Shown: in pieces, positions 13,170-49,583 of the stretch
Layout of the letters: each line of letters starts with the position of its first letter
Position numbering within the stretch: position 1 is the first letter of the stretch
DNA from: Amycolatopsis sp. EV170708-02-1
Lineage (GTDB): Bacteria > Actinomycetota > Actinomycetes > Mycobacteriales > Pseudonocardiaceae
Length of the DNA stretch: 64,000 nucleotides
NCBI RefSeq assembly: GCF_022479115.1
Contig: NZ_CP092497.1
Span: 4,092,001-4,156,000 of the forward strand
Direction of reading: 5' to 3'
Notes under the pieces: model-generated
Told to the model about the DNA's origin: nothing
Databases searched by the model: none
What the model saw: the letters and a program-made list of their open reading frames with translations, nothing else
Made by a program: the position numbers and the translations under genes

Positions 13170-13186
13170 AAGTGCCTTTCGAAGAG

Positions 13187-13218
13187 GGTGCCGCCCGGTC
13201 CGACGACCGGGCGGCACC
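13187..13218. terminator. Strong hairpin between secreted peptide and hydrolase
   Basis: Perfect 14-bp inverted repeat: GGTGCCGCCCGGTC at 13187-13200 and GACCGGGCGGCACC at 13205-13218 with a 4-base loop. It lies after the small secreted gene and just before the hydrolase start, so it could be a terminator or attenuator. Confidence 0.6.
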
Positions 13219-13241
13219 ACGGGATCAACGCCTGTGGTGGA

Positions 13242-13998: not shown

Positions 13999-15198
13999 TC
14001 AACGGTTCTGCAGTTGGAAGAAGACGCTGCCCAGCAACCTTTTCTTCAGCCAAGGACTCCGGTTCAGCGATCGATAGAACGTGGACCGCAGGGCTACTCT
14101 CACCGGGTCGGAAAAGGTGAACATTCTTTCCTGTCGAAGCTGCAGCGAACGGGAACGCCGTAAGCTGGGTTCCCTGATCCGCTGGAACTCCCTGGCCGCC
14201 ATCGTCACTTCATCGGGTCCCTTGGCAAGCGCCTCGGACAGGAGCGGTGCCAAGGTCATGGCATCGAACAAGGCATGGCTCACCCCTTGGCCCAAGATCG
14301 GCGAGAGCGTATGTGCGGCGTCACCGATGAGTAACAGGCCAGGCCGGGACCATCGGGGGACGACGCTGGTGAAGATGTCCAGAACCGAGGTGTCCGACCA
14401 GTTCCGGATGCTGTCTCGGACCAGGTCGGCGAGTTCGGGTGCGAGCTCGTCCAGCCGGGTGTGCAATCCGGTGAGACCTGCTCGCCGAAGGTTCTGGAGT
14501 CCGCCCTTGGGGATGTTGAACCCGACTCGCATGAGGTCCGGATAGGTCGGGATGAACAAGCCGTGCCGGCCACCGGCGATCCGGATGTGGTAGGTGTCGC
14601 TCGTCCAGTCCGGTGGGGCGGGAAGCTTCAGCCACACGACATCGCGCTCCAGCGGTGTCCGGCGGTAAGGAAGGCAGGACATTTCGAGCATCTTGCTGTA
14701 CCGGCCGTCGGCGCCGACGGTCAGTCGTGCCCGGATTTCTTGCTCGCCTGCTGGACTTCGGCTGCGAACGCCCGCGACTGCTCCGTCGGTCTCCAGGAGT
14801 CCGACCGCGGAAGTGTTCCGCAGCAAGGCGAAGCCGGTGTGCCGACCGGCTTCCTGTGCCAGGATGGCCAGCAACGTCGGCTGAGGGACATCCAGCGGGT
14901 GACGATGGCGATGGGGAAAGTCGTCGAAATCGACTTCCAGAAGGGTTCGCCCGTTTTCCGTGAGCTTCATCTTCCGATTCACCAGCGCGCCGGCGTCCGT
15001 GACACTCTCCAGGATCCCGAGACGGGCCAGCAGTGACACCGCGTCCGGGGAAATCGTCTCCCCACGGAATGATCGGTTGAAATGACCGGTCTGCTCCAGG
15101 ACGGCCACGTCGCACCCGCGGCGAGCGACTTCCAGGCCGAGGGTCATCCCGGCCGGGCCGCCGCCGATCACACAGACATCCACGGACAGCTTATCCAT
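13999..15198 (-). CDS. FAD-dependent monooxygenase
   Basis: 399 aa flavoprotein of the PHBH/UbiH-like class A type. The N-terminal dinucleotide motif is VCVIGGGPAGMTLG (residues 8-21), a middle VGADGRYS matches the DG motif, and LLIGDAAHTLSPILGQG near 285 is the FAD ribityl-binding GD motif. ATG 15198 overlaps the stop of the preceding hydrolase by 8 bases, indicating translational coupling. It is the last gene of the tetronate operon, so it probably oxidises the acyl-tetronate or its chain; the exact step is not predictable. Upstream in-frame residues are a shadow of the hydrolase. Confidence 0.88.
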   Translation of the reverse strand: MDKLSVDVCVIGGGPAGMTLGLEVARRGCDVAVLEQTGHFNRSFRGETISPDAVSLLARLGILESVTDAGALVNRKMKLTENGRTLLEVDFDDFPHRHRHPLDVPQPTLLAILAQEAGRHTGFALLRNTSAVGLLETDGAVAGVRSRSPAGEQEIRARLTVGADGRYSKMLEMSCLPYRRTPLERDVVWLKLPAPPDWTSDTYHIRIAGGRHGLFIPTYPDLMRVGFNIPKGGLQNLRRAGLTGLHTRLDELAPELADLVRDSIRNWSDTSVLDIFTSVVPRWSRPGLLLIGDAAHTLSPILGQGVSHALFDAMTLAPLLSEALAKGPDEVTMAAREFQRIREPSLRRSRSLQLRQERMFTFSDPVRVALRSTFYRSLNRSPWLKKRLLGSVFFQLQNR

Positions 15199-16243
15199 TG
15201 AACCCCTTGAGGAATGTGGCCGTATATCCGGCCGTACGAAGGCGAAGGAGGGAGTGGACGATCCACAGCTTGGTCTGGAGCACATGACCCGGTGAGCCGT
15301 GTACGTCGTCGAACCGAACCGCCTTGAACTTCGCGAGGTGTCGCTCGAGGACGCGAGTGTCGGCGGAGGGAATGATCTCGTCCCGGAGGCTGACCACGGA
15401 ATACACCGGAACCTGTACCTGGGTGAGCTCGTCGGGCCGGAGGGCGAAGGCACCGAGACGTTCCGGAACCTCGCCTTTCGGGACTCGGAGGAGATGGGCA
15501 AGGGCGCGCTTCGTGGTTTCGGGCACCCCTGTCCACCAGATGCGGTCCCGGAAGAAGGCCGATACCGGCGGGCCGACGGTCACCAGGCCGCTCAGCCGCG
15601 GATCGTGCGCGGCGCAGCGCAGCGCGAGGTGACCGCCGAAGCTCATGGCGACCGCGTATACCTCGCGCACCGGGGCGATCTCAGTGATCTTGTCGATCAT
15701 ACCGGAAAGCATCCGCCAGCTGTCGTGGCCGTAGGGGAGCGGGTTTTCCCCCACGCCAGGCATTTCCGCGGCGACGGCGGCCATGCCGAGCCTCCTGGCC
15801 GCCGGCAGTGAGGGTGCCCATTGCTCCTTGACGCTCACGATCCCGCCGATTAACAGCAGCAGCGGGCGGGGTACGCCGGGATCGAGGCCGGTGGCCCACA
15901 CCGGCACACGGTGCCCGGACAGTTCCAGCTCAAGCCGATCGATCCCTCCCCGGCTCGACCGCCACTGATCGAACTCGGCCACGCAACGGTGTGCGGCGCG
16001 CTCCTGCGCAGGGTTCGCCGGAAAGGGAAAGCGCGCCAGATTGTTCAGCTTGCAGGCGTCGAGATGGCGCCCTGACTCGGTCATCCGGTCGGCGGCGAGC
16101 ACCCATTCCCGGCACCAGGATCCCGGTCCGTCGCCGTCGGTGCGCTCGATGCGTTCGAGTATCTCCCGGCACAGAGCGTCGGGAAGGCGTTGGACCCGCG
16201 CGTGCAACCGGACGAGATCGCTCAGTTCGGCGAGGTACGACAT
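15191..16243 (-). CDS. Alpha/beta hydrolase, agglomerin Agg5-like (tetronate elimination)
   Basis: 350 aa with a helical N-terminal part (about 1-110) and an alpha/beta hydrolase domain. The nucleophile elbow is AVAMSFGGH and the His lies in DVHGSPGHVL near the C-terminus. The FrsA/DUF1100-like layout and its position after FkbH, ACP and acyltransferase genes match the enzyme that removes the acetyl group from O-acetyl-tetronate to leave an exocyclic double bond in agglomerin-type pathways. ATG 16243 shares one base with the upstream stop. The role is by family and gene order, not shown directly. Confidence 0.82.
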   Translation of the reverse strand: MSYLAELSDLVRLHARVQRLPDALCREILERIERTDGDGPGSWCREWVLAADRMTESGRHLDACKLNNLARFPFPANPAQERAAHRCVAEFDQWRSSRGGIDRLELELSGHRVPVWATGLDPGVPRPLLLLIGGIVSVKEQWAPSLPAARRLGMAAVAAEMPGVGENPLPYGHDSWRMLSGMIDKITEIAPVREVYAVAMSFGGHLALRCAAHDPRLSGLVTVGPPVSAFFRDRIWWTGVPETTKRALAHLLRVPKGEVPERLGAFALRPDELTQVQVPVYSVVSLRDEIIPSADTRVLERHLAKFKAVRFDDVHGSPGHVLQTKLWIVHSLLRLRTAGYTATFLKGFNG

Positions 16244-17013
16244 CAGGGGATCGGCCCGCCGGCATTCCGGCTCGTGAGGGTTTCGAGCCGGTCCTTGAGG
16301 TTGCCGAGGACGTCGGCCGCTGCGGCGCCGTCGATGACGCGGTGGTCGAAAGTGAGCGAGACCGGGAGGATCGGCATGACGCACAGTTTTCTCTCGCGCA
16401 CCGCCGGCCGGTCGGTGATCCTGCCCAGTCCGAAGGTCAGCGTGGTGCCACCCGAGGAGAAGAACCGGGTGACCGGCCGATGGCCCAAGGACGTGACCGC
16501 GACGGTTCCCATCCGCCGGTGGCGGCTTCGCAGCCGGTTGGCCCAGCCGAAGGCGACCCGTCCGACGGGCAACGGGAGCCGCTGAAGTACACGAGCGCCG
16601 CGAAGCTCGGGGATCTCTTCGCCGGCCGTGTCTCGGAGGCGGTCCACGGTGTCCTGGATCGCGTCGAGGCTCATGAGATCGCAGTCGGGAACCACCACCG
16701 AAAGCACCGCCCGCCGGCCGGCGATCCCCTTGTCGAGGGCCAGCTTCACATCGACGGACTCGCGGTTCACGATGCGTGGACGGAGACCTCCCGCGCAGGC
16801 GGCGTTGGCCTCGGGGCACTCGGCCACGGCACGGCTGACGCCGTGCATCACGTAACTCACCACGGAGTACCGCCGGTTCGCCGCATGCTTGTGCGCCAGC
16901 AACCTCGTGGCGTCCACTTCGGTGTCCAGATAGACAGGGCTGGCGGTGCGGACGAACCGGAGGAAGTGCCAGGTATGCCGTCGTGCCGCGGGCAGCGACC
17001 GGATCGTCGTCAT
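16243..17013 (-). CDS. 2-oxoacid dehydrogenase-type acyltransferase, Agg4-like
   Basis: 256 aa, only the CAT-like catalytic domain without lipoyl or E1/E3-binding domains. The signature DHRVIDGAAAADVL near 222-235 contains the catalytic His and Asp. VTSLGHRPVTRFFSSGG precedes it as in E2 enzymes. In tetronate pathways such a stand-alone domain acetylates the hydroxymethyl group of the ring before elimination. ATG 17013 overlaps the ACP stop by 4 bases. The call is strengthened by the five-gene order KAS III, FkbH, ACP, acyltransferase, hydrolase. Confidence 0.86.
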   Translation of the reverse strand: MTTIRSLPAARRHTWHFLRFVRTASPVYLDTEVDATRLLAHKHAANRRYSVVSYVMHGVSRAVAECPEANAACAGGLRPRIVNRESVDVKLALDKGIAGRRAVLSVVVPDCDLMSLDAIQDTVDRLRDTAGEEIPELRGARVLQRLPLPVGRVAFGWANRLRSRHRRMGTVAVTSLGHRPVTRFFSSGGTTLTFGLGRITDRPAVRERKLCVMPILPVSLTFDHRVIDGAAAADVLGNLKDRLETLTSRNAGGPIP

Positions 17014-17237
17014 TCGGTGGACTCCACCTGTGCGTGGAGTTCGGCCAGGCTGCGAGCTTCGAGAAAACGCATGGCGGACAGGAGCCTGCCGGTCGCGGCT
17101 TCGAACGCGGACAGCAGTTTCAGCAGGTGGAACGAATCCCACCGCGGGAGTTTGTCGAAATCGGTTCGCAGATCGTCTCGGGTGAGATACAGGCCGCATT
17201 CCTTGCCCACTATTTCGAGGAATCCGTCGATACTCAT
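17010..17237 (-). CDS. Acyl carrier protein for the glyceryl unit
   Basis: 75 aa discrete ACP. The phosphopantetheine site is Ser35 in PRWDSFHLL, with helix II following (LLKLLSAFEAATGR). It lies between the FkbH-like gene and the acyltransferase and overlaps both by 4 bases. Its expected job is to carry the D-1,3-bisphosphoglycerate-derived glyceryl group from the FkbH enzyme to the ring-forming KAS III-like enzyme. The DSL motif is DSF here, as in many FkbH-partner ACPs. Confidence 0.85.
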   Translation of the reverse strand: MSIDGFLEIVGKECGLYLTRDDLRTDFDKLPRWDSFHLLKLLSAFEAATGRLLSAMRFLEARSLAELHAQVESTE

Positions 17238-19168
17238 TCGGCCGCCCGATCGCCGAGGCGTTCGCTCAGCCGCACGACGAGTTCGAGATGAGGCGGATTC
17301 GGTGGAACCGTGCTCAGGTCGTGCGAGAACCCGGTGTCGTCGTCTTCGGCATCGGGATCGGCGGTGAACCCGTTCAGCGGATAGAAGTCCTTGACCTTGT
17401 CGTTCATGCCGGTCAGGCGGAAGGCGGCGGTGACCTTGGTGGCACCCGCCCGCGCCGCCTGGCGGAGGATCGCCCGCAGGCAGGCGGTCTCGACGTCCCG
17501 GGCCAGGACGCGGCAGGACAGGACGAAATTGTCGATATGCAGCACCGGACCCCGTCGGCGCGTGAAAATCGCGCCGATCGTTCCGTACTCGCCGAATCGG
17601 TCGGTGCAGCGGACCGCGATCACCTCCGTGTCCTGGCCGGCGATCAGCTCGAGCACGGCCGCGGTGTCCAGGCGGTCCGCCGTGAGATTGAACCTGTTGG
17701 TGCGCTGGGTCAGTTGTGCGACCCGTCCGGCGTTGCCATGACCCGCGTCGAACAGTTCCACGGTGGTCCCGAGACCTGCCAGGTAGTCGGCTTTCGATTC
17801 GACCTCTTCGCGGAGCTTCACGCGTTTCCGGTCGGTCAGATAGCGCTGGACGCGGGTTCGATCCGCCTGGGTGATCTCGTCGGTGACGAACCACCTGTCG
17901 GCGAGCAGGCGACGAACGTGCAGTGCGGGCTCGTCGGCGTCGACCGCGATCACCGGGACCGCGGGTAAGGCGTCGCGGACCACACCGCGTTCGGCCGCCG
18001 AATCGTCCACGAACACGAGGCTGTTCACGTCGATACCCAGCTTGTCCGCGATCTCGGCCAGGTTCCCCGGCTTGGCACCCCAGTTGACGGCCATCGCCAC
18101 GATGTCGTCCGCGCCCAAAGCCAGTTCCGGGTTCTGCTTGAAGACCTCGAGGACCTCGTCCTCGTCGTTCTTGCTGCACACGGCGACCAGCACACCCTGG
18201 GCGCTGAGTTGTTTCACGGCCGTCTGGAAGGCGTGGAACGCCTCACCCCGGAAACCTTCGCTGATTTCGATGCCGTCCGGTCCGTCGTCGGCGAGGTTTC
18301 CGCCCCACAGCGTGCCGTCGAGATCGATGACGAGGCATTTGCCGGCGCGCCCGGTGAGCGACCGCACCACGTGCCCGATTTCCCTGGCGTAGGCGGAAAA
18401 GAACTCGTCCGAGAAGTGTACGTTGGCGTAGCTGCTCGCTCGGGGATCGGCGAGGGCACCGGTCTCGCCCAGCAGCGGTTCGGTGTCCACGGCGAGCACC
18501 CCGGGCCGGTTCGTGGAGAACGTGAGCAGATGCGCGTTGAATTCCCGCCACGTGGCGCCGAGCAGCGCACGCGAACAGTGGTCGATGAGCTGGGAGGCCC
18601 AGTACCAAGGCAGTGGAACGGTGTTGAAGACCAGTGTGCCGGTGTGCTTGGCCTGATACGCGTCAGTGATTTCCTCGAGATGCGAGCTCAGCTGCCGCAG
18701 CGCGTACCGGACGTCCGCCGGTGTCCAGGGAGTCCGGAGCCGCTGGAACACCGCGTCGGCGTCCAGCAGGCACACCGTGACGTCCGGTTCGGTCGCGAAC
18801 AGCTCGTTGTGCGTTTCCCTGAGTTCGATCGCATACTGGCCGTAACCGCCGACCTGAATGCGCGGAACGAAACCATGCCGGGCCAGCTGGGCGCTCAACG
18901 GCGACACCATCGGCCGGATGGTCGAACTGCCGGTGATCGCCACGGTGGCCTCGGGAAGGCCGGGGTGACGTCGGAGCAGGGCGTCCGGGTGTACCTGGGA
19001 CAGCACGGTTCCGGCGCGAAGCAGGGCGGCTTCGTCCAAACCCGCCAGCAGTTCCGGCACCGCGGTGTAGCTGTCGATGAGTTCTCCGGTGGCGTGCAGG
19101 TGGCTGAGGCGGACGTCGCCGGGCGCCGGGCACTTGCCGAGCAACTGGGGTGCGGTGGTCGTCGTCAC
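17234..19168 (-). CDS. FkbH-like glyceryl-ACP synthase
   Basis: 644 aa. An N-terminal part of about 290 residues (SGNH-like segment with VAITGSSTIRP) precedes the HAD domain, whose motif LVIDLDGTLWGGNLADDG carries the catalytic Asp pair. FVDDSAAERG follows as the later HAD motif, and a GNAT-like C-terminus includes RLTGMNDKVKDFYPLNGF. These features define FkbH-like enzymes that dephosphorylate 1,3-bisphosphoglycerate and transfer the glyceryl group to an ACP. GTG 19168 overlaps the KAS III stop (GTGA), which fixes the start. The next gene is the matching ACP. Confidence 0.93.
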   Translation of the reverse strand: MTTTTAPQLLGKCPAPGDVRLSHLHATGELIDSYTAVPELLAGLDEAALLRAGTVLSQVHPDALLRRHPGLPEATVAITGSSTIRPMVSPLSAQLARHGFVPRIQVGGYGQYAIELRETHNELFATEPDVTVCLLDADAVFQRLRTPWTPADVRYALRQLSSHLEEITDAYQAKHTGTLVFNTVPLPWYWASQLIDHCSRALLGATWREFNAHLLTFSTNRPGVLAVDTEPLLGETGALADPRASSYANVHFSDEFFSAYAREIGHVVRSLTGRAGKCLVIDLDGTLWGGNLADDGPDGIEISEGFRGEAFHAFQTAVKQLSAQGVLVAVCSKNDEDEVLEVFKQNPELALGADDIVAMAVNWGAKPGNLAEIADKLGIDVNSLVFVDDSAAERGVVRDALPAVPVIAVDADEPALHVRRLLADRWFVTDEITQADRTRVQRYLTDRKRVKLREEVESKADYLAGLGTTVELFDAGHGNAGRVAQLTQRTNRFNLTADRLDTAAVLELIAGQDTEVIAVRCTDRFGEYGTIGAIFTRRRGPVLHIDNFVLSCRVLARDVETACLRAILRQAARAGATKVTAAFRLTGMNDKVKDFYPLNGFTADPDAEDDDTGFSHDLSTVPPNPPHLELVVRLSERLGDRAAE

Positions 19169-20190
19169 ATTCCCTCCACGGTGAAGGCGCCCTTGATCCA
19201 TTTGCTGGACTCGATCGCGATCGCGACGGCACGTTCGCCAGGCCGGATTCGGTCGTAGAGCAGATCGAGCTGGAAGAACGGAGTGGCATTGCCGGTATTG
19301 CCGGTTTCCGCGACGCAACTGATCTCCGCCGCCTGCCCCAGAGCGAGATCGGAGGTGATCCTGCTGGTCATCCGCCCTGACAACTGCGGTGGCAGCAGAT
19401 AAGACGTCGACTCGCGATCCCAGCCCGTCGACGACAGGATCTCGTCAAGGGCTTCCCTGGCCAGCGGCGGTACTCGCTCCTCGATCGCCTTGTAGTCCTC
19501 TTCGAACGGCGGGTCGGGCTCGGACTCCGTACGGGCCAGATCTCCCGCACCGAACCAGCGCACGATTTGGCCGGGTGCGCGGCCGAGCCCGGTGAACCGG
19601 TTGAGCACCTGGCGCAGCACGATCGCTCCCGGCACGGCTTCCGACGTGACCACGATGGCACCCGCGCCATCGCCGAACAGGACGTAGTTGACGAGTTCGG
19701 CGGTGGGAAGGCCTTGCATTTCCCGGTCGGCGACGAAGTGTTTCACGCCGGCGTCGCCACCGATGACCAGGCCGAGGCGGTGCTGGTCATCGAGTAACCG
19801 TCGAGCGAGATCCAGCGCCTGCACCGCGCCGGCACAGCCGGACTGGAGCTGGTAGGTGGAAACGTGGTTGAGGCAGAGCCTGCTGGCGATCAGGTTCACC
19901 GTCGCGGGCATCAGCGTGTCGGGAGTGGCCGTGGCCAGAATGACGAAGTCCAGCTCTTCGGGTTCGAGGCCCGCTCTGGCGAGCGCCTGCGCACCGGCTT
20001 GCGCGCCCAGATCCGCCAGCGTGTGCGTGGGTTTGCCGGTTTCCAGATCGATGGCGAAATGCCGTTTCCTGGTGCCGATGAACATTTCGATCCATTCGGC
20101 GCTGATGCCGAGTTTCCCGGCCATGACCTCGTTGTCGATCACGTCGCCGGGCAGGGCCGTTCCGGTGGACACGATATGTGCCGCAGGCAA
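19165..20190 (-). CDS. KAS III-like tetronate ring-forming enzyme (RkD/Agg1-like)
   Basis: 341 aa FabH-fold protein. The active-site Cys is about residue 119 in LQSGCAGAVQAL. The Asn region reads GNTGNATPFF. The position of the FabH histidine, normally in PHQAN, reads YLLPPQLSGRM, so the usual His is not there. Enzymes such as RkD and Agg1 join a beta-ketoacyl-ACP with glyceryl-ACP by C-C and C-O bonds to form tetronate, and do not need decarboxylation. The position between the PKS (14-base gap) and FkbH supports this role. A primary-metabolism FabH is unlikely. Confidence 0.87.
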   Translation of the reverse strand: MPAAHIVSTGTALPGDVIDNEVMAGKLGISAEWIEMFIGTRKRHFAIDLETGKPTHTLADLGAQAGAQALARAGLEPEELDFVILATATPDTLMPATVNLIASRLCLNHVSTYQLQSGCAGAVQALDLARRLLDDQHRLGLVIGGDAGVKHFVADREMQGLPTAELVNYVLFGDGAGAIVVTSEAVPGAIVLRQVLNRFTGLGRAPGQIVRWFGAGDLARTESEPDPPFEEDYKAIEERVPPLAREALDEILSSTGWDRESTSYLLPPQLSGRMTSRITSDLALGQAAEISCVAETGNTGNATPFFQLDLLYDRIRPGERAVAIAIESSKWIKGAFTVEGM

Positions 20191-20203
20191 TGGTTGGTCC
20201 TTT

Positions 20204-23085
20204 CTAGGAAGCGTTGTGTCGCGCGGAGACGTACGAGACGACGTCCTCCACGGTTTCGAGCTGGGGAAGTTCGGAGAGATCCATCGGTCCGTCGAGGCGA
20301 AGGATCGTCGTGAGCCGGGCGCTCAGCCGGATCAGGGTGAGCGAGTCGTAGCCGAGGTCGTCGAGCAACCGGGCGTCCCTCTCCAGACCGGCCGCCGAAT
20401 GGCCGCCGACCTCCGCCAGCGCCGCAAGCGTTCGCTCGACGATCGAATTCGGGGCCTCGGCTGTCGTGACGGGCGAACTTGCGTGATCGTCGAAAACATA
20501 GGGCGGCAGCCGCCAAGGTACCTGTTGTTGTTTGGTGTACAGCCGCTGCCAGCGTGGGGTAAGCCCTTGGCGATACAACTCGGCCAGCACCTCGGAGATC
20601 TCGTGACCGGTGGCCGCCCCACCGGGGCATGGCGTGAGGATGGACGGCTCATGGCAGGGGTCGGCGCGCCGGATGAGGTCGAGGGGCATCGGTGCGGGAC
20701 CGATCTCGATCAGGTGGGTCGGAGCAGGCTCGCGCACCGCGGCCAGCGCGGCGTCGAACCGGACCGGGGCGGTGAGCTGCTCGACCCAGTAGGCGGAGTC
20801 CAGCTCGTCGTCGGTGACCAGACGGCCGTGCACGGTCGACGCGATCGGGACGATCGGACGATGAGCGGGGATACCGTCGGCCGCCCTGCTGAACTCGGCC
20901 ACCACCGTCCGCATCAGCGGCGAGTGCAAGGCCGCGGAACCGAGAATCGGCTTCGTGACCACTCCGGCCTCTCGGAGTGCGCCGGTAACCCGGGCGACAC
21001 CATCGGTGTCACCTGAGATGACCAAGTCGCGAGGACTGTTGTACGCGGCGATCGCGACAAGCGGTTCGGCATCGATGTGCGGTTTCACTTGAGCGGCCGT
21101 CGCCTCGACGGCGACCGTGGCGCCGTAGTCCGTCAGTCTCTGGATCGACGCGGCGAGCGCGACGACGATTTCGCAGGCGGCGGACAGGGGCAGAACCCCG
21201 CGAGGCAGGCGGCGGCGTACTCGCCGATGCTGTACCCGAGCATGGCCTCCGGCCAGACGCCGAGGTCCCGGAGGGTGGCGCCGAGCGCGTACCCGACCGC
21301 GAACGACGCGGGCTGGGCCAGCCCGGGGTCGTCGATGGAGACACTGTCGGGATACATGTCGTCGATCACCACGGACGCTATCGACCGGCCGAAATACGGG
21401 CGCATGGCCGAGTCCACCTCATCGAACCGATCGCGGTACGCGGGAAGGTTGTCGTACAGCGCGCGGGTCATCCGGGGGTATTGGGCGCCTGGTCCGGTGA
21501 ACAGGAAGATCACCTTGGGGGTGGCATACCCGCTGCCGACCGGCATTCGCGGATCGCCTATCTGCGCGCGTAGCTCGGCTTTGAGTTTCTCGCGATTCCA
21601 CGCGGGCAAGGCCCACCTGTGTTTGAGGGAGGTCTTCACGAGGTTGGTGCTGTGGCAGATTTGGGGCAGGCGTTCCGACGGCTCGCGATCGATCATCTCG
21701 GCGAGGGTGGCAAGGTTGCGTTGCAGCGCCCTGATCGTGTTGGCCGAGACGGTCAGCACACCGACACCGCCTCGTTCCGGCCCGCGGTCCGCGGCCGGGG
21801 GAGTCGCCAGCACCAGATGAGAATTGGTACCGCCCAAGCCGAAACTGCTCACCGCGCCCCGAACCGTGCCCTCGGCGGGCAACCGCATCGGCAGCCGGGC
21901 CAGCCACAGGCCGTGCTGGTCCAAGCGCAGATCGGGGTTCTCGTTGTCACTGTGCCTGCTGGGCGGCAGTACGCGGCGATCCAAGGCGAGGCAGGTCTTG
22001 ATCAACCCCGCGATGCCGGCAGCTCCTTCCGTATGTCCGATGTTCCCCTTCACCGAGCCGAGCGCGCAGGGCTGTTCCCGTTCGCCCGCGTGCACAGCGC
22101 CGAGAGCCTGGACTTCGATCATGTCGCCGAGCGTTGTGCCTGTTCCATGTGCCTCGACGAAATTGACCTCGGCGGGCCTCACGCCGGCCCGGGCGTAGGC
22201 GTTTCCGATGACCTGTTGTTGCGACCACCTGTTCGGGGCGGTCACGCCATTGCTCCGGCCGTCGTGGCTGACCGCCGATCCTTCGATCACCGCGTAGATG
22301 GGCTGCTTGTGGGCTATGGCGTCGCTCAGGCGCCGCAACACGACCACACCGACGCCCTCGCCGCGGCCGATCCCGTTCGCCTTGGCACTGAACGGCTTGC
22401 ACTCGCCGTCCGGGGCGGACAGGCCCGCCTGCGTGTAGAAGATCGAAAGCGCGGGGGTGAGGATGATGTTGACGCCCGCCGCGATCGCGAGGTCGCAGTC
22501 GCCCGCGGACAACGCGGCGATGGCGAGGTGTACGGCCACGAGGGACGACGAGCAGGCGGTGTCCACCGCCACACTCGGTCCCTTGAGATCGAGGTGGTAG
22601 GAAATACGGTTCGCCGCCATGTGATAGCCGTTGCCCGTACCCCGTTGCGGGGTGATCTCCGCGTAATCCGCCATGTTCAGCACGGCCCATTCGCTGGACA
22701 TGATTCCGACGTGGACACTCGTCCGGCTGCCTGCCAGCGACGCCGGGTCGATGGCGGCGTCCTCGACGGCACGCCAGCTCGCCTGGAGGAGGAGGCCCTG
22801 CTGAGGGTCCATTTCGAGCGCGTCGTGCGGTGCGATACCGAAGAATTCGTGATCGAAGGACTCCGGGTCGCTGAGAAAGCCCGCCATCGTGGTGTTCATG
22901 GTTCCCGGTTTACCTTCGGCGGAATAGAACGCCTCGGCGTCCCACCGATCGGCGGGTATCTCGGTGATTCCGTGATCGCCTTTGAGTAGCATCTCCCAAA
23001 AGGCGTTCTTGTCCGGCGCTCCGGGGAATCGGCAATCGATGCCGACCACGGCCACGGGACTGATCGGTCCGGCTCCCCAGGTCAT
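20204..23085 (-). CDS. Single-module type I PKS (KS-AT-ACP), one-base frameshift in AT
   Basis: About 960 residues after repair. KS: VDTACSSS for Cys, EAHGTGTTLGD and GNIGHTEGAAG for the two His. AT: FTGPGAQY, GYSIGEYAAA (Tyr where His is usual) and ALHSPLM, which favours malonyl-CoA. C-terminal ACP: LGYDSLTLIRL. There is no KR, DH or TE, so one beta-keto unit should be left unreduced, as the tetronate enzyme needs. The frame breaks after AACLAG at the C run 21196-21199 (plus strand). One more base gives AACLAGVLPLSAAC and continuity to KPHIDAEPLV. ATG 23085 overlaps the ACP stop by 4. Confidence 0.88.
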
Positions 23086-23330
23086 CGCCGTGCCACCAGT
23101 TGGGTGCGCAGATACTCGGACATGGCCGTCACGGTCGGGTAGTCCCACGCCATCGTCGGTTCGACCGGTACCCCGAAATGGTCTTCGATTTCTCCGCACA
23201 AGGTGAGCGCGTACACCGAGTTGAGTCCGTATTCGGCCAGTGGACGGGTGATGTCGATCCGGTCCGGCTCGATCGCGAGATAGCTCGCGACCTTCTGGAT
23301 GAGCCACGCGGCCGTGTCGATTTTGGGCAT
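23082..23330 (-). CDS. Discrete acyl carrier protein for the fatty-acyl starter
   Basis: 82 aa ACP from ATG 23330 (AAGGA 7 bases upstream). The attachment Ser lies in YGLNSVYALTLCGEIED (about residue 39), and helix III ends AMSEYLRTQL. It sits between the two ACAD-like genes and the PKS. The likely partner is the FAAL further upstream, which would load an adenylated fatty acid onto it for desaturation. A longer TTG start at 23369 is possible but has no better ribosome site. Confidence 0.85.
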   Translation of the reverse strand: MPKIDTAAWLIQKVASYLAIEPDRIDITRPLAEYGLNSVYALTLCGEIEDHFGVPVEPTMAWDYPTVTAMSEYLRTQLVARR

Positions 23331-23365
23331 GATCTTGTCCTTGTCGTGGGAGGTCGGTTCGCCGC

Positions 23366-25066
23366 TCAACGAGGAAGCGTCCGGCGGACCTGGTCTTCGT
23401 CGAGGCAGAAGCTGGTTTCTTCGGCCGCTCGAGTGAGCAATTCGGTGAACAGCTCTTCGTCCAGCTCACTCGCGCTGGGTGGGGTGCCGGGCATGAGACG
23501 GCCGAGCAGCCGGCGCAGCGCGACCCGGATCCAGGCCGAGCCGGCCAGCACTCGCCGATCCCGGTTGTGCCGCCAGATACCCAGGCACGCGGTCACGGTC
23601 AGCAAGATCGCATAGCGCTCTGCCAGCGTGTCGCCGTCCAACCTGTTCGCCGGATCCAGCTGCCAAACGTGTGCCCGGCCGACGTGGGTCGCGAGCTGGT
23701 CCAATTCGGTGAGCAGGAGGGTGGCGATGGTCGAGAGGTCCGTGGCCGCCTTCGCCTCACCGCGCAACTCGTCCAGCCAAGGCTCAAGGCAAGCGAGCAG
23801 CGGATCGCCCTGCACACGGGTCGGATGCTCGTTGTGCGCGAGCGGGGGTAATGCCGTCTCCGAAATGAAAATCGACTCCGATGCGGCGGAACTCGAGGGA
23901 TAGCGCTGCGCGTGGGCGAAGGCGGGCAGGTGTGCGGCGATGGTGATCTCTTCGGGTGTGCGGTCCGGATAGACCAGGCTCAAGGAGGGAAGATCACGGA
24001 AATGTTTGCCGAAGATCGCATGTTCGCCCTCGCGAAGGTAATACCTCGCGCCGAGAACCACTGACAGCTCGTTCATCGCGTTTTCGATCACCAGCGGAAC
24101 CAGATACCGAGCGGCCGCCGCGTAGGCCCTGGAATGGCCCGGCAGGACGTGCAGGGCCCTGGTCGCCGTCGTGACCATGCTGTCGGCGATCAGCAGATCG
24201 GCGAACGCGCCGGCGATGGTCGCTTTGGCATGAGGGAGATCGCTGACAGCACGGCCGTACAGCCGCCGGTGAAGCGCGAACCGCAAGACGGTGAAAAGAC
24301 TGGCGTCGAGCATGCCGAGGGACAGTCCCATGGTCAGACAGCCGCCGATCTCGGAAGAGCGACGCGCGAGACCGGCTCCGCATCTCGCCGAGCCGATGAG
24401 GCTGCCCGGCGGGGCGGGACACATGCTGAACTCCAGGCCGCCGAGATGACAATCTCGCAGCCCGAGGGTGCGGACCCTGGGGGATCTCCGCAGGCTCTCG
24501 TCGGGAAGAGCCGTCAGGTCGACGAGCAGCAGAGACCTCGAGTGCTGATTCTCGGTGTAGGCCGTTCGCGCGACGATGACAGCGTTGTCGGCACGGTCGG
24601 AATTGAAGACGAGACCGGCATGCCCGTCGAGGACACACCGGTTGCCTCGCTCACGAGCCGTGACCTCGAGCGCGGCCGGATCCGGATACATTCCCGGTGT
24701 CCCCTGAGCCAGACAGACCTTGCTCCCGCCCAAGATCTTCTCGGCCAGGGCATCCTGCTGCCGGTCGTTGTCCGCCGCGAGCCACACGTTGAGAGACGCC
24801 AGCAGAGTCGGCACTCCGTAGCCGATGCCCAGTGCGGCATCTCGCCGGAACACCGGTCGCAAGCGCCTGATGAACTCGTCCGCGGAGCCCAGCCTGCCAC
24901 CCAGCCACTGTGGCACGAACTCCGCGTTGACGGACAAGGAATCGAGCAGTTCCTCACCGGCTTCGAAGACCTCGCCTCGTTCGTCCGCCTCGATGATGGC
25001 GTTGTACCCAAGCGGGTTTCCGGGCAGGTATGGATCCCCGAACTCCTTTTCGAGATCCACCGTCAT
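23366..25066 (-). CDS. Acyl-CoA dehydrogenase-like flavoprotein 2
   Basis: 566 aa, longer than a standard ACAD (about 380-400). The N-terminal half has the all-helical part and a beta-domain (VCLAQGTPGMYPDPAALEV, LVFNSDRADNAVIVAR). The second helical bundle includes RFALHRRLYGRAVSDLPHAKATIAGAFADLLIAD, a typical ACAD FAD/dimer segment. A C-terminal extension of about 130 residues is shared in layout with the neighbouring ACAD. ATG 25066 overlaps the upstream stop by 4 bases. It probably introduces a double bond into the ACP-bound acyl chain, as for paired ACADs in ramoplanin/enduracidin lipid assembly. I cannot assign the catalytic Glu. Confidence 0.82.
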   Translation of the reverse strand: MTVDLEKEFGDPYLPGNPLGYNAIIEADERGEVFEAGEELLDSLSVNAEFVPQWLGGRLGSADEFIRRLRPVFRRDAALGIGYGVPTLLASLNVWLAADNDRQQDALAEKILGGSKVCLAQGTPGMYPDPAALEVTARERGNRCVLDGHAGLVFNSDRADNAVIVARTAYTENQHSRSLLLVDLTALPDESLRRSPRVRTLGLRDCHLGGLEFSMCPAPPGSLIGSARCGAGLARRSSEIGGCLTMGLSLGMLDASLFTVLRFALHRRLYGRAVSDLPHAKATIAGAFADLLIADSMVTTATRALHVLPGHSRAYAAAARYLVPLVIENAMNELSVVLGARYYLREGEHAIFGKHFRDLPSLSLVYPDRTPEEITIAAHLPAFAHAQRYPSSSAASESIFISETALPPLAHNEHPTRVQGDPLLACLEPWLDELRGEAKAATDLSTIATLLLTELDQLATHVGRAHVWQLDPANRLDGDTLAERYAILLTVTACLGIWRHNRDRRVLAGSAWIRVALRRLLGRLMPGTPPSASELDEELFTELLTRAAEETSFCLDEDQVRRTLPR

Positions 25067-26865
25067 GACACCTTGCCGTAACTGTTCGGCGTGCCTGCGG
25101 CCGTCGCCTCGGCGAGCTGGAAACCGAAGAGCGACGGGAGTTGTTCATTCCTCACCTGGTCGGCCAGGACGTCGAAGAGGAGATCGAACGGCGGGGTGGC
25201 GACGCCGCCGCGCTGGTCGCCGGTCGTGGTCAGGATCCGGTGGAGCGCGGCATGAAGCCAGACACCGTTACGCCACAACAGATCCTCGGCACGCCTCGGA
25301 CGTCCCGCGGGTCGCCGGGCCGGGACCTCCTGATGGTTTCGCAACCACAGTTCGATCGCGACCGCTCCGGCGAAATAGAGCGCGGAGCGCTTGGCGACAG
25401 AGAAGAGGTGGTTTGAGATGTCCGTTCCGGACAGGGGTTCCTCCGCGATGTCCATCCAGAGCTTGTCCAAGGCCTCTCCCAGCCGTTGTGCTGTCGTGGC
25501 GAGCGGCATGAGCAGCGCGTTGTCGTTCGCGAGCGCGGTGACCTGGGAAATCGACGATTCCGCGGCGAGGAGAAAACTCGCGCCGCTCCGCGGTATCAGG
25601 GCCAGTTTGCCGAGCTCGGCCCGCGGTATCGGCCGGGACAGCTCACAGCAGGCCGCGAGCCCCTCGTGGTCCGGTGCGAGCCGCTTGTCACGCGCTCGGG
25701 CGAGGAGTGAGAACATGCTGATCAGCGAATGCAGGTTGACCACGGTGTTGCCGTCGAACAGCGAGACGACACGATGGTCGCGCTCGACCTTGCCGAGACA
25801 GCCCCGGCGCCGGCCTTCCTGGTAAAGCGCGGCCGGTCCCATGAACCTCCGCAGGCGCGCGATCGCCGCCTCCGTGCGCGTGGGAACGAGATACTTGGCG
25901 ACGGCGGCGATCACCGCGAGTTCGGAGGTGAGCGTGTGAACGGCGCGAACCGCCACGACGGAAAGTGCCTCGGAGAGCAGGTGATCCGCGTAGGCGAGCG
26001 CTATGGTCCTCCGCGCTCGACGGAGATCGATGTCGGGACGCCCATTCCGGCTGTTCTTCTCCAGGAAGTCGACGGCGATCCGGAGCGCGTGATCGCTGCT
26101 GCCGAGGGACAGCGCGGAACACAACGTCCTGGTGACCTGTAGTCCTTTGAGGACGGTTTCCAGTCCGGAACCCTCGGGGCCGATGAGTGTATCCGCCGGT
26201 ACTTCGGCGTCACAGAACACGATTCCGCTGACGTCGGCGCACCGATTGCCCAGTGTGCGCACTTTTGGCAGACATCGATAGCTGCCGAGCAGTGTTGACT
26301 TGTCGACAAGGAAGAGGCTGAAACCCCGCGGTCCACCCCGGGGATCGGTTCGCGCCAGTACGCACATCACACCGCACCTGGTCGCGTTGTTGATCGGCCA
26401 CTTCTCGCCTCGCAGCCGGTAGGAGGTGCCGGTCTTCTCCGCGACCAGTTCACCGCCTGCCAGGTCGCTCCCGTGGTCCCGTTCGGTGAGGCCCCAGGAC
26501 ACCGGGACGCCGGCGGTGATCATTCGGCCGAGGGAAGCCGCTTGGGATCGGTTCCCGGCAAGCCAGACACAGACGGCGCCGAGGTAGGTCTTGGCGTGCG
26601 CGACGGCGACTCCCATATCCCGCCTCGCCAGCATCCGCACCATGTGTGCGGTGGTTTCATAGCTGGTGAGCAGTCCGCCGTGTGGCGCGGGAACGTAGTA
26701 CCGGCCCAGACCGAGCTCGTCCAAGTGGCGGCAGACATCATGCGGGAACTCGCCGGAGTGGTCGAGTGCGGCGAGCCGCGCGTAGCCGAACTCCAGACAC
26801 CGGTCCTCAGGGTTTCCGAGGACCGTCTCCAAGCGCTGGATGGGCTCCCAAGGGCGGTATTTCAC
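25063..26865 (-). CDS. Acyl-CoA dehydrogenase-like flavoprotein 1
   Basis: 600 aa from GTG 26865, which overlaps the FAAL stop (GTGA). Typical ACAD elements are VSWGLTERDHGSDLAGGELVAE, the LRGEKWPINNATRC substrate/FAD loop, KVRTLGNRCADVSGIVF, and VVSLFDGNTVVN near the C-terminal catalytic region. A C-terminal extension (SGTDISNHLFSVAKRSALYFAGAV onward) makes it longer than canonical ACADs and similar in plan to the next gene. The pair presumably acts in turn on the FAAL-loaded acyl-ACP to make a diene or enoyl chain. Residues upstream of this GTG are shadows of FAAL. Confidence 0.84.
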   Translation of the reverse strand: MKYRPWEPIQRLETVLGNPEDRCLEFGYARLAALDHSGEFPHDVCRHLDELGLGRYYVPAPHGGLLTSYETTAHMVRMLARRDMGVAVAHAKTYLGAVCVWLAGNRSQAASLGRMITAGVPVSWGLTERDHGSDLAGGELVAEKTGTSYRLRGEKWPINNATRCGVMCVLARTDPRGGPRGFSLFLVDKSTLLGSYRCLPKVRTLGNRCADVSGIVFCDAEVPADTLIGPEGSGLETVLKGLQVTRTLCSALSLGSSDHALRIAVDFLEKNSRNGRPDIDLRRARRTIALAYADHLLSEALSVVAVRAVHTLTSELAVIAAVAKYLVPTRTEAAIARLRRFMGPAALYQEGRRRGCLGKVERDHRVVSLFDGNTVVNLHSLISMFSLLARARDKRLAPDHEGLAACCELSRPIPRAELGKLALIPRSGASFLLAAESSISQVTALANDNALLMPLATTAQRLGEALDKLWMDIAEEPLSGTDISNHLFSVAKRSALYFAGAVAIELWLRNHQEVPARRPAGRPRRAEDLLWRNGVWLHAALHRILTTTGDQRGGVATPPFDLLFDVLADQVRNEQLPSLFGFQLAEATAAGTPNSYGKVS

Positions 26866-28628
26866 AGACTCGCCTCCGAGCCGGCGAAGGTCACGGTGGT
26901 CGCGGACGCAGGATGGGGTTTCAGCTGCCCGGAAAGGAACTTCTCCCGCATCAGCCGTCGCTGTACCTTGCCGCTGGTCGTCTTCGCGATGGCGCCCGAG
27001 CGCACCATGACCACGTGCGCCAAGTGGACGTCCAGCTCGGCCCGAACTTTCCGCCGTACCAGCTCGGCGAGTTCGTCGGCGCTGGCCTCCCGCAGCCGCG
27101 CCGCGCTCACTTCGTGCACGAGAACCACCTGGTCGCAGCGCTCGCCGACAGCGAAGGCCGCGGCCTTTCCCTTGCTCAGCGCCGGATGGGCCAGATGCGC
27201 GGTTCGCTCGATATCCCACGGATAGAGGTTGCGGCCGTTGACGATCAGCAGCTCCTTGAGCCTGCCGATCACATAGAGTTCGCCGCCGTCCAGCACGCCG
27301 AGATCTCCGGTACGGAGAAAGGGGAAGTCGCCGTCGGTCGCCGTCGCACGGAATATCTGTACACTCTCCATCGGCTGGTTCCAGTACCCGGCCGCCACGC
27401 TGCCGCTCCGTACCCAGATCTCACCCACCTGGCCGTCCGGCAACGGCCGGCGAGTGAGCGGGTCGACGATGCGGATCGTGACCCCCGAGGGTGTTCCGCA
27501 GCTCACCAGAACAGTGCGGCTCGCCGGCGAATCCGCGTCCTTCAGTTCGTTTTGTTCCAGCGCCTGGGGGTCCACCGCGCGGGTCACCATTCCCCGGCTC
27601 TTGGTACCTGTGACGAAGAGAGTCGATTCGGCGAGCCCGTAGCACGGAAGAATCGCACGTTCGTCCAGCCCGGCGTGGCGGAACCGCTCGATGAAAGCCT
27701 TCAGTGAATCGTGCCGCACGGGCTCGGATCCGTTGCAGAGCACGCGGAGCGAAGACAGGTCCAGCTCCGCGAGTTGCTCGTCGGTGACCCTGTCCGCGGC
27801 CAGGCCGAAAGCGAAGTCGGGTGCCACACTAACGGTGCCGCGGTACCGGCTGACCGCCCACAGCCACCGGTGCGGACGTATCAGGAACGTCATGGGGGAC
27901 ATGAAGTGCGTAGTGCCACCCAGATAGAGCGGATGCAGCAGCTGCCCGATCAAACCCATGTCGTGGAAGTGGGGAAGCCAGCCGACCAGTGAGATATCCC
28001 GGCCCGTGCCCAGCGCCTGCCGGATGAGGTGCTGGTTGCTCATCAGGTTTCCCTGCGTGACCACGACTCCCTTGGGCCGATCGGTCGAGCCCGATGTGTA
28101 CTGGAGGAACGCGGTCGTCTTCCAGCGAAGTTTGACGGGGCGCCAGGTACGCGGCGAGGCCGCGGGAAGCATGTCCGTGGCGGCGTGACGTATCCGGCGA
28201 GGCAGGACATGATGATCAAGCCAGTCCCGAATGGTGGCGGCGTGGCTGCTCTCGGTGAGAATCACGCTTGCTTGAGCATCGAGTGCGAGAGCCCGGGTCC
28301 GAGCGGCGCCGTTCCCGCCCGCCGCGGTGAGCGGCGCGGGTACCGCGATGACGCCGGCATAGAGGCATCCCAGAAAGCCGACCACGAACTCCGGACCTGG
28401 CGGGAACAGCAGGATCGCCCGCTCACCCGCGGTGGTGTTCTCCTGCAGCCAGATCGCGACACGCCTGGCCCTCGAATCGAGATCGCGATAGGTCACGCTC
28501 TCTTCGGTCATGCCGGTCCCTGACTCCCGGAGAAAGACGAGCGCACGCTTGTCGGCGTGTTCGGCAACTCGGTTACGGAACAAAGTGACAAAATCGAGTC
28601 CGTCGCTCAACAGGGAAGACCTTTCCAT
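26862..28628 (-). CDS. Fatty acyl-AMP ligase (FAAL)
   Basis: 588 aa adenylate-forming enzyme. Motifs seen: LQYTSGSTDRPKGVVVTQGN (A3), WLPHFHDMGLIGQ (typical of FAAL), CYGLAESTLFVTG (A5), FLRTGDLGVLDGGELYVIGRLKELLIVNGRNLYPWDIE (A7/A8; split by residue class) and KTTSGKVQRRLMRE (A10). FAALs activate free fatty acids as acyl-AMP and load ACPs rather than CoA. It is the first gene of the 11-gene operon. ATG 28628 is preferred over the preceding TTG; the ribosome site is weak. The chain length accepted cannot be read from sequence. Confidence 0.92.
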   Translation of the reverse strand: MERSSLLSDGLDFVTLFRNRVAEHADKRALVFLRESGTGMTEESVTYRDLDSRARRVAIWLQENTTAGERAILLFPPGPEFVVGFLGCLYAGVIAVPAPLTAAGGNGAARTRALALDAQASVILTESSHAATIRDWLDHHVLPRRIRHAATDMLPAASPRTWRPVKLRWKTTAFLQYTSGSTDRPKGVVVTQGNLMSNQHLIRQALGTGRDISLVGWLPHFHDMGLIGQLLHPLYLGGTTHFMSPMTFLIRPHRWLWAVSRYRGTVSVAPDFAFGLAADRVTDEQLAELDLSSLRVLCNGSEPVRHDSLKAFIERFRHAGLDERAILPCYGLAESTLFVTGTKSRGMVTRAVDPQALEQNELKDADSPASRTVLVSCGTPSGVTIRIVDPLTRRPLPDGQVGEIWVRSGSVAAGYWNQPMESVQIFRATATDGDFPFLRTGDLGVLDGGELYVIGRLKELLIVNGRNLYPWDIERTAHLAHPALSKGKAAAFAVGERCDQVVLVHEVSAARLREASADELAELVRRKVRAELDVHLAHVVMVRSGAIAKTTSGKVQRRLMREKFLSGQLKPHPASATTVTFAGSEASL

Positions 28629-28775
28629 CAATACGCCGGTATTTCACGCCCGATTCGGGTGCCGCAGGGCACGGACTGTGCGATCGGGCCGTCACAGTCT
28701 GCTGGCGGGCGCGGAATCGAAAAAGAGGCCACCTCGGCGGCCCCCTGGTCGCGGATGGCGAGGTACAGCTATAGA

Positions 28776-29431: not shown

Positions 29432-29532
29432 AATGGAATCTCCTGCTTTGGGTTTCTGATGAATCAGGGTTTCTCCTAGGGGCCCTGAGATAGATGTTGT
29501 CAACGTGGTCGGCCGCATAAAAGAGGCCATCA

Positions 29533-29895: not shown

Positions 29896-29910
29896 TTGGT
29901 TTCCTCGCGC

Positions 29911-31527: not shown

Positions 31528-31556
31528 AAAGAACTCCGTATCTGTGTGATCTCGTC

Positions 31557-34474: not shown

Positions 34475-34624
34475 TAATACTCCCACTCGGTGAACCCCGC
34501 GCGAATTTTCATGGGACTGTTGCCCAGGCTGTGCAGGGTGGGTTCAGTGTTAATGGGAGTGGCCGCTTCCGCGCTCTGCAGCAGATACTTTAATGTATCG
34601 CACGCCTTCAAAAGGATTGTCAAG

Positions 34625-45205: not shown

Positions 45206-45226
45206 GAGGCATAGGTATCTAGCCAG

Positions 45227-49570: not shown

Positions 49571-49583
49571 ATCAAGCAGGACT

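What the first reader, a model, noticed from the sequence alone, without database searches (positions are those of the whole stretch)
13999..28628. Hybrid operon joining ramoplanin-type lipid loading to an agglomerin-type tetronate cassette
Seen: eleven minus-strand genes, almost all overlapping: FAAL, two long ACAD-like genes, ACP, KS-AT-ACP, KAS III-like, FkbH-like, ACP, E2-type acyltransferase, alpha/beta hydrolase, FAD monooxygenase. Known: FAAL/ACP/paired ACADs make unsaturated acyl starters in ramoplanin and enduracidin. KAS III/FkbH/ACP/acyltransferase/hydrolase in that order is the agglomerin set giving a tetronate with exocyclic methylene. Inference: the product is an unsaturated 3-acyl-tetronate, extended by one malonyl unit and then oxidised. 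I cannot name a described cluster with this whole make-up.
Basis: partly seen in the sequence, partly recalled or inferred. Interest (0 to 1): 0.9.

Follow-up and report, generated by a model that had tools for sequence, protein, structure and literature searches.

The report
Lipid-loading operon fused to tetronate ring cassette
In an Amycolatopsis genome, genes that activate and desaturate a fatty acid sit in one operon with genes that turn the chain into a reactive tetronate ring; the combination recurs in other actinomycetes, and its product could not be named from the papers searched here.

Summary
A minus-strand operon (28628-13999) carries FAAL, two ACAD-like genes, ACP, KS-AT-ACP, KAS III, FkbH, ACP, E2-type acyltransferase, AbyA5-like hydrolase and flavin monooxygenase; KS-AT-ACP is frame-broken near 21.2 kb, though intact copies exist in relatives. 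The tetronate half is well supported: hydrolase to AbyA5 E 1.9e-88, abyA1-A5 gene order (PMC3625739 passages). It is not a one-off: 37 of 78 other KAS III contexts (best matches, not a random sample) hold FAAL, ACAD and the same KS-AT, in Amycolatopsis and, by contig-length inference, Actinokineospora, Prauserella and Streptomyces. Seven paper searches aimed at this make-up found none. New point: in the window and two close relatives ACAD2 has lost its flavin loop and active-site residue, while ACAD1 has lost the Arg expected to hold its partner's FAD. The losses are complementary, in genes under purifying selection. I predict one heteromeric dehydrogenase and a mono-unsaturated starter, giving a 3-(2-enoyl)-5-methylene-tetronate that is then oxidised. 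Two separate desaturations are not excluded. Product, ring and oxidation site are inferred.

The parts
26862..28628 (-). FAAL (fatty acyl-AMP ligase), 588 aa from ATG (TTG possible at 28631)
   Evidence: PF00501 E 7.6e-66; NCBIfam fatty-acid--AMP ligase subfamilies, none over its cut-off; PDB best 7r7e E 2.4e-128, FadD32 5ey9 E 1.5e-87
25063..26865 (-). ACAD1, 600 aa; keeps flavin loop (LTERDHGSD) and an acid at the MCAD Glu position (FDGNT); lost the Arg of R-x-x-Y-G
   Evidence: PF02770 E 2.8e-14; motifs
23366..25066 (-). ACAD2, 566 aa; lost flavin loop and active-site residue, keeps RRLYG; predicted beta-type partner
23082..23330 (-). ACP1, 82 aa, starter-unit carrier
   Evidence: PF00550 E 5.5e-16
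21133..23085 (-). KS plus N part of AT (first piece of a frame-broken KS-AT-ACP)
   Evidence: PF00109 E 6.5e-87, PF02801, PF00698 profile 1-102
20204..21088 (-). C part of AT plus ACP (second piece; its reading frame begins upstream of this GTG)
   Evidence: PF00698 profile 143-273, PF00550; single frame in relatives
19165..20190 (-). KAS III-like tetronate synthase (AbyA1/RkD type), 341 aa
   Evidence: PDB 5by7 E 2.1e-102; Cys kept, Pro at the FabH His column, Asn kept in 38 of 38 rows
17234..19168 (-). FkbH-like glyceryl transferase/phosphatase, 644 aa
   Evidence: TIGR01686 262.4 bits against cut-off 146.65
17010..17237 (-). ACP2, 75 aa, glyceryl carrier by position and W-D-S motif
   Evidence: no Pfam hit; W33-D34-S35 invariant in 9 rows; position as abyA3
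16243..17013 (-). E2-type acyltransferase (Agg4/AbyA4 type), 256 aa
   Evidence: PF00198 E 5.7e-20; D223-H224-R225 and D228-G229 invariant in 8 rows
15191..16243 (-). alpha/beta hydrolase (Agg5/AbyA5 type), 350 aa
   Evidence: PDB AbyA5 4ywf E 1.9e-88
13999..15198 (-). group A flavin monooxygenase, 399 aa
   Evidence: PF01494 E 3.1e-37; model pLDDT 85; best PDB matches Bacillus niacini FMO 8urc, 8urd, 8uiu
12345..13220 (-). second alpha/beta hydrolase, possible cluster member
   Evidence: PF00561 E 4.3e-20; homologues near the cluster in L029, L116 and L113
13242..13643 (-). small ORF without Pfam match, possible cluster member
   Evidence: no Pfam hit; similar ORF seen in one relative, G211 (L055/L116)

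Best explanation
A lipid-tetronate biosynthetic operon. FAAL activates a fatty acid and loads ACP1. The ACAD1/ACAD2 pair dehydrogenates the ACP-bound chain, most likely as one heteromeric enzyme giving a 2-enoyl starter. KS-AT-ACP adds one malonyl unit without reduction, giving a 3-oxo-4-enoyl thioester. FkbH loads glycerate from 1,3-bisphosphoglycerate onto ACP2. KAS III joins the two and releases a 3-acyl-5-hydroxymethyl-tetronate. The E2-type enzyme acetylates the hydroxymethyl and the AbyA5-like hydrolase eliminates acetate, leaving a 5-methylene group. The flavin monooxygenase then oxidises ring or chain. Shown here: gene identities, order, conservation, active-site residues. Inferred from characterised homologues: every chemical step. 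Least certain: number of double bonds and site of oxidation. The confidence given is for the ring-forming scheme with an unsaturated fatty starter; the single-double-bond part is rated in the section on the most novel reading.
For: Family assignments. KAS III to 5by7 E 2.1e-102 and hydrolase to AbyA5 E 1.9e-88. Order and sizes of KAS III/FkbH/ACP/E2/hydrolase (341/644/75/256/350 aa) match abyA1-A5 (341/622/78/251/355; PMC3625739, passages). Ring steps described in PMC5819245, PMC4979870, PMC7489565 (passages). 37 of 78 other KAS III contexts hold FAAL, ACAD and the same KS-AT; of these 37, 35 have FkbH, 29 E2, 28 the hydrolase, 24 both E2 and hydrolase, 22 the flavin monooxygenase within the stretches held. 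HAFHSP malonyl-type AT motif in 25 of 37 relatives (the window has AALHSP). Rotihibin: FAAL, two ACADs, ACP and a cis-2-decenoyl tail (PMC8552735, passages).
Against: KS-AT-ACP is frame-broken in this assembly, so this strain may make nothing. Two-ACAD taromycin and malacidin clusters go with 2,4-dienes and single-ACAD clusters with one double bond (PMC9113097 section 24); the rotihibin paper itself gives one ACAD the first double bond and explains minor -2 Da species by the second. The family is not uniform: 8 of 37 lack an E2 match and 9 of 37 a hydrolase match in the stretches held, and 4 further loci (L109, L181, L201, L211) have FAAL and KS-AT but no ACAD. ACP2 has no Pfam match.
Confidence: 0.78

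Rival explanations
1. Same ring chemistry, but ACAD1 and ACAD2 are two separate desaturases (delta-2 and delta-4), giving a 2,4-dienoyl starter and a 3-(2,4-dienoyl)-5-methylene-tetronate.
For: Tar5/Tar6 and MlcH/MlcI pairs go with 2,4-dienes (PMC9113097 section 24). In 30 of 33 hybrid pairs ACAD2 keeps the loop Glu and Gly and has His at the catalytic position.
Against: In the window and its two close relatives ACAD2 has lost these residues (loop QGTPGMYPD, site VYPD in the window) while ACAD1 has lost the R-x-x-Y-G Arg.
Confidence: 0.3
2. The FkbH, ACP and ACAD genes make a methoxymalonyl- or hydroxymalonyl-ACP extender unit, and no tetronate is formed.
For: Such operons use FkbH, an ACP and dehydrogenases (PMC7489565 and PMC6395733 passages).
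Against: No 3-hydroxyacyl-CoA dehydrogenase or O-methyltransferase family among 40 window proteins scanned, which is not every ORF. KAS III, E2 and AbyA5-type genes are present; the ACADs lie with FAAL and ACP1.
Confidence: 0.04
3. A spirotetronate: the methylene and a chain diene undergo a [4+2] addition, helped by the flavoprotein as in PyrE3/ChlE3.
For: The flavoprotein shows weak sequence matches to PyrE3 (E 1.8e-11) and ChlE3 (E 5.5e-9).
Against: Far closer to Bacillus niacini flavin monooxygenase (E 5.2e-44; ranks 1-7 in Foldseek). Only one short PKS module; a double bond next to the ring carbonyl is poorly placed for intramolecular addition (inference).
Confidence: 0.07
4. Decayed operon: frame-broken KS-AT-ACP and degenerate ACAD2 mean that the pathway is dead here.
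For: Frame change near 21.2 kb; ACAD2 motif loss.
Against: dN/dS against the two close relatives is 0.09-0.33 for every gene except the AT C part, ACAD2 0.20-0.22. The whole ACAD2 loss is shared by five distinct Amycolatopsis-type genes (window, P0013-P0016). A subtilase in the same window is also split over two frames, which hints at assembly indels.
Confidence: 0.12

Closest known systems
Glycerate-utilisation (tetronate) operon, abyA1-A5 of abyssomicin; Agg and Rk homologues
   Same: KAS III, FkbH, ACP, E2-type acyltransferase, alpha/beta hydrolase in the same order and of like sizes; AbyA5 E 1.9e-88
   Different: The abyssomicin chain comes from a 7-module PKS; here from a FAAL-loaded fatty acid and one KS-AT-ACP module
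RK-682 (simple 3-acyl-tetronate)
   Same: RkD/RkE-type enzymes with two ACPs RkC and RkF (PMC4979870, PMC5819245 passages). The ACAD-free loci L109, L181, L201, L211 may be of this kind (inference; the RK-682 paper is not held)
   Different: RK-682 keeps the hydroxymethyl and a saturated chain (recalled); here E2/hydrolase, ACAD pair and flavin monooxygenase are added. Its gene list beyond RkC-RkF was not seen, so it could be closer than I can show
Agglomerin A
   Same: Acetylation-elimination by Agg4/Agg5 to a methylene tetronate (PMC4979870 passage)
   Different: No FAAL/ACAD starter cassette known to me in agglomerin (recalled, not checked)
FAAL/ACAD/ACAD/ACP starter cassette of lipopeptides (rotihibin RthH-K; taromycin and malacidin ACAD pairs)
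   Same: Same four genes in the same order as rotihibin (PMC8552735 passage)
   Different: There an NRPS takes the acyl chain; here a KS-AT-ACP and a tetronate synthase take it
Alpha2-beta2 acyl-CoA dehydrogenases (ChsE4-ChsE5)
   Same: One subunit keeps the isoalloxazine side and catalytic acid, the other contacts the ADP part of FAD (PMC11153573 passage)
   Different: 566 and 600 aa, nearer VLCAD in length; ACP-bound substrate expected; oligomer not shown

Membership tests
Tetronate (glycerate-utilisation) clusters | KAS III homologue of AbyA1/RkD type | tested here: met
   Position and size as abyA1; 5by7 E 2.1e-102, though whether 5by7 is a proven tetronate synthase is not known from these calls, and AbyA1/RkD themselves were not aligned
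Tetronate (glycerate-utilisation) clusters | FkbH-like glyceryl-ACP synthase | tested here: met
   TIGR01686 over cut-off
Tetronate (glycerate-utilisation) clusters | Stand-alone glyceryl ACP with a Ser for the arm | tested here: inconclusive
   W-D-S motif invariant, no Pfam match
Tetronate (glycerate-utilisation) clusters | Acyltransferase/dehydratase pair for the exocyclic methylene | tested here: met
   PF00198 and AbyA5 matches
Tetronate (glycerate-utilisation) clusters | Product with a tetronate ring | not testable with these tools
   needs metabolite isolation
FAAL/ACAD/ACP lipid starter cassette | FAAL beside ACAD gene(s) and a free ACP | tested here: met
FAAL/ACAD/ACP lipid starter cassette of lipopeptides | Delivery of the chain to an NRPS condensation domain | tested here: not met
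   no NRPS domain among the operon proteins scanned; KS-AT-ACP follows
Alpha2-beta2 ACAD | Split of flavin/active-site and ADP-side residues between two subunits | tested here: met
   complementary loss in window, L029 and L055, which are close kin and count as one event
Alpha2-beta2 ACAD | Heteromeric complex with one FAD per pair | not testable with these tools
Methoxymalonyl-ACP operon | 3-hydroxyacyl dehydrogenase and O-methyltransferase | tested here: not met
   absent among 40 window proteins scanned
Spirotetronate | Diels-Alderase of PyrE3/ChlE3 type | tested here: inconclusive
   weak match only; nearer to a hydroxylase
Spirotetronate | AbyU-type Diels-Alderase | not tested
   no specific search was made

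The most novel reading that the evidence does not exclude
In this Amycolatopsis clade two once-independent chain desaturases have become the alpha and beta halves of a single obligate heteromeric ACP-linked dehydrogenase with a split FAD site, so that the clade makes a mono-enoyl tetronate where its Streptomyces and Actinokineospora relatives make a dienoyl one: a natural series for the birth of an alpha2-beta2 acyl-CoA dehydrogenase inside an uncharacterised family of methylene-tetronates.
Probability: 0.35. Interest if true: 0.68.

Novelty: new variant of a known kind. Interest (0 to 1): 0.52.

Why it matters
A 5-methylene-3-acyl-tetronate is expected to be a reactive Michael acceptor, and tetronates are a source of antibiotics. 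A compact operon conserved across actinomycete genomes, with a predictable small product that I could not find described, is a good target for isolation. The ACAD pair offers a direct test of how many double bonds two ACAD genes make, which the lipopeptide review assigns by homology and gene number (PMC9113097 section 24, which says that no mechanistic studies had been reported for these enzymes).

Tried and rejected
Foxicin clusters (PMC5318452; outline with abstract, and passages found by term) looked promising because they are widespread in Streptomyces and use FkbH, but foxicin has a modular PKS/NRPS with a fused FkbH domain, and the gene table in the passages lists no FAAL, ACAD or KAS III: rejected.

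Paper searches. Seven of the ten searches were aimed at this make-up or its tetronate part; the other three asked about AbyA5, ramoplanin-type ACADs and heteromeric ACADs. Most hits were seen as listings only; passages were read in PMC3625739, PMC7489565, PMC11153573, PMC8552735, PMC7176366, PMC6395733, PMC4979870, PMC6066502, PMC7333363 and PMC5819245, and one section of PMC9113097. The library holds open-licence papers only, and the RK-682 and agglomerin papers are not held. So 'not described' is limited to these searches.

A general heteromer rule for all FAAL-linked ACAD pairs was my first idea (note) and was dropped. My first count of the R-x-x-Y-G Arg used the wrong column; searches use the right one. 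Rows dropped before counts: L043 and L044 (both queries had hit one gene); L178, L196, L199, L205 and L206 in the pair count (no two clear ACADs). ACAD1_L038 also lacks the Arg; it belongs to a locus without tetronate KAS III match, and misalignment is possible.

The label 'degenerate' in the ACAD2 tree was mine, by eye. It covers seven Amycolatopsis-type rows with whole loss (five distinct genes) and P0017-P0021 with altered motifs, of which P0017 and P0018 still have His at the site. P0023, P0063 and P0069, with partly altered motifs, were labelled intact. The tree used 60 of the 119 hits. Structure search of the ACAD2 model gave generic ACAD matches among the rows shown and neither supports nor excludes the heteromer. 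Trees are quick trees; in the KAS III tree hybrid rows need 3 changes, so a single origin of the hybrid is not shown; L001 and L003 fell to the coverage filter, the outgroup row has a very long branch, and the loci fetched later (L176-L215) are not in it.


Full report
Where it is. The window is G000:C1:4092001-4156000 of a 9.66 Mb single-contig genome. The closest named relatives of its proteins are Amycolatopsis decaplanina and A. coloradensis, so it is an Amycolatopsis or close kin. Other species named below for G genomes rest on matching contig lengths and are inference.

What is there. Minus strand: FAAL 28628-26862, ACAD1 26865-25063, ACAD2 25066-23366, ACP1 23330-23082, KS plus N part of AT 23085-21133, C part of AT plus ACP ending at 20204, KAS III 20190-19165, FkbH 19168-17234, ACP2 17237-17010, E2-type acyltransferase 17013-16243, alpha/beta hydrolase 16243-15191, flavin monooxygenase 15198-13999 (families). 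Eight of ten junctions overlap. No KR, DH or ER domain was found in the two KS-AT-ACP pieces.

The break. The AT is split by a frame change near 21.2 kb. The gene is a single frame of 968-1033 aa in 36 of 37 hybrid relatives (the other, L198, reads as 588 aa). By my own script the part after the break is not more relaxed in the window (dN/dS 0.39 and 0.43) than between two intact relatives (0.50), so the break is recent or an assembly error. A subtilase at 4307-8217 is also split over two frames, which makes assembly indels plausible.

The tetronate half. The hydrolase matches AbyA5 (4ywf, E 1.9e-88) over 339 residues. KAS III matches 5by7 at E 2.1e-102, while the next PDB match is E 4.4e-26. 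In the window and 37 hybrid relatives, 38 of 38, KAS III keeps Cys and Asn and has Pro in the column of the FabH His (the FabH triad is recalled). The order KAS III, FkbH, ACP, acyltransferase, hydrolase and the sizes match abyA1-A5 (PMC3625739, passages). PMC5819245, PMC4979870 and PMC7489565 (passages) describe the steps: glyceryl-ACP by FkbH, ring closure and release by KAS III, and exomethylene by acetylation (Agg4 type) then elimination (Agg5 type).

A family, not a one-off. I looked at 78 stretches around tetronate-type KAS III genes of other genomes, taken as best matches of several searches and so not a random sample. 37 hold FAAL, at least one ACAD and the same KS-AT; 4 hold FAAL and KS-AT without ACAD; 4 hold FAAL with another PKS; 33 have no FAAL above threshold, of which at least one (L182) is cut by its contig end. 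Of the 37, 32 have two clear ACADs. In the stretches held for the 37, FkbH is found in 35, E2 in 29, hydrolase in 28, both of these in 24 and the flavin monooxygenase in 22; some misses may lie beyond the stretch, but E2 and hydrolase are plainly not universal. Members include A. decaplanina and A. coloradensis (about 90% identity), three Actinokineospora-type genomes, a Prauserella-type genome and many Streptomyces-type genomes. In the genus of G560 (Streptomyces-type), 65 of 392 genomes have such a KAS III; of the 30 stretches from that search that I read (L176-L205), 26 are hybrids. In 17 of 17 upstream stretches fetched for loci where FkbH had been missing or cut, FkbH lies next to FAAL, with the flavin monooxygenase nearby in 10 of 17 (three further stretches served other ends). 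Relatives also carry a PPTase (Pfam in 4 of 4 tested) and a P450 (Pfam in L033; similar ORFs in L099, L108, L115).

The ACAD pair. Across 33 pairs with two clear ACADs (window plus 32), ACAD1 keeps the Glu of the flavin loop and has Asp at the medium-chain Glu position in 33 of 33. ACAD2 has His there in 30 and Tyr in 3; none has an acid. In a wider set neither type has Glu at the isovaleryl-type position. The R-x-x-Y-G Arg is kept by ACAD2 in 33 of 33 and by ACAD1 in 30 of 33. The three ACAD1 that lost it (window, L029, L055) are exactly the three whose ACAD2 lost the flavin loop and the His. These are close kin, so this is one event, not three. In a tree built without the motif columns, the 12 ACAD2 rows that I labelled degenerate by eye form one clade (SH-aLRT 100): seven Amycolatopsis-type rows (five distinct genes) with whole loss, and P0017-P0021 with altered motifs, two of which still have the His. 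ACAD2 has dN/dS 0.20-0.23 among the three close genomes, like its neighbours, so it is kept as a protein. Its model is a confident ACAD fold (pLDDT 87) whose weakest segments, residues 124-129 and 364-367, are the two former active-site loops. In ChsE4-ChsE5 one subunit binds isoalloxazine and holds the catalytic Glu, the other contacts the ADP-ribose part of FAD (PMC11153573, passage). I infer that ACAD1 and ACAD2 here form one heteromeric enzyme with one working site, and so make one double bond. For: rotihibin, with two ACADs and a cis-2-decenoyl tail (PMC8552735, passages). Against: that paper gives one ACAD the first bond and the second ACAD minor -2 Da species, and taromycin and malacidin have two ACADs and 2,4-dienes (PMC9113097 section 24).

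The flavin monooxygenase. Its nearest solved relatives are Bacillus niacini flavin monooxygenases, one with bound (2,6)DHP, which I take to be an electron-rich hydroxy-heterocycle; PyrE3 and ChlE3 are far weaker. Hydroxylation or epoxidation of ring or chain is the likely role; its site is unknown.

Predicted product. A 3-(alk-2-enoyl)-5-methylene-tetronic acid, oxidised by the flavin enzyme. Relatives with intact ACAD2 would make the dienoyl form. Chain length cannot be read from these data.

Verdict. A new variant of a known kind: known modules in a combination that is conserved and, in the papers searched, undescribed. Interest is moderate for the cluster and higher for the ACAD pair if confirmed.

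Noticed in passing
window 45077-49570 (+): Lasso-peptide-like cluster: 42-codon ORF 45077-45205 with a Cys-containing C-terminal part, Asn synthase-like gene 45227-47068, PqqD-like gene 47065-47319, ABC transporter 47531-49570. A BTAD (SARP-type) activator lies just upstream at 44219-44962. The naming as lasso is mine; a leader peptidase gene was not looked for.
   Followed up: partly
L088-L091 (Kibdelosporangium-type genomes): KAS III 62-63% identical to the window's beside a FAAL and a modular PKS; no FkbH match in the 20 kb stretch of any of the four, nor in a further 20 kb on each side in the two where I fetched it. A tetronate-type KAS III without its glycerate partner.
   Followed up: partly
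L178, L196, L199, L205 (Streptomyces-type genomes): A subgroup with FAAL, one ACAD-like gene matching both queries weakly, KS-AT and KAS III, and no E2, hydrolase or flavin monooxygenase match in the stretch: perhaps a different tailoring route.
   Followed up: no
window 4307-8217 (+): Subtilase split over two overlapping frames (PF00082 profile 1-78 and 81-279), a second frame break in the window.
   Followed up: no
window 20204-21088: The AT C part plus ACP has dN/dS 0.39-0.50 among three close genomes, higher than any other gene of the operon in the same comparison; fast change of the AT may bear on extender choice or docking.
   Followed up: no
window 28832-34486 (-): Lamin-tail-like protein, two DUF2334 proteins and a UDP-GlcNAc 2-epimerase upstream of the operon; similar ORFs beside it in close relatives. 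They look like surface polysaccharide genes.
   Followed up: no
G000 4090910-4091173 and 4160195-4160461, just outside the window: Two more KAS III C-domain matches flank the window; their contexts were not studied.
   Followed up: no
window 49389-52133 (+): NB-ARC/TPR protein of 914 aa next to the lasso-like genes.
   Followed up: no
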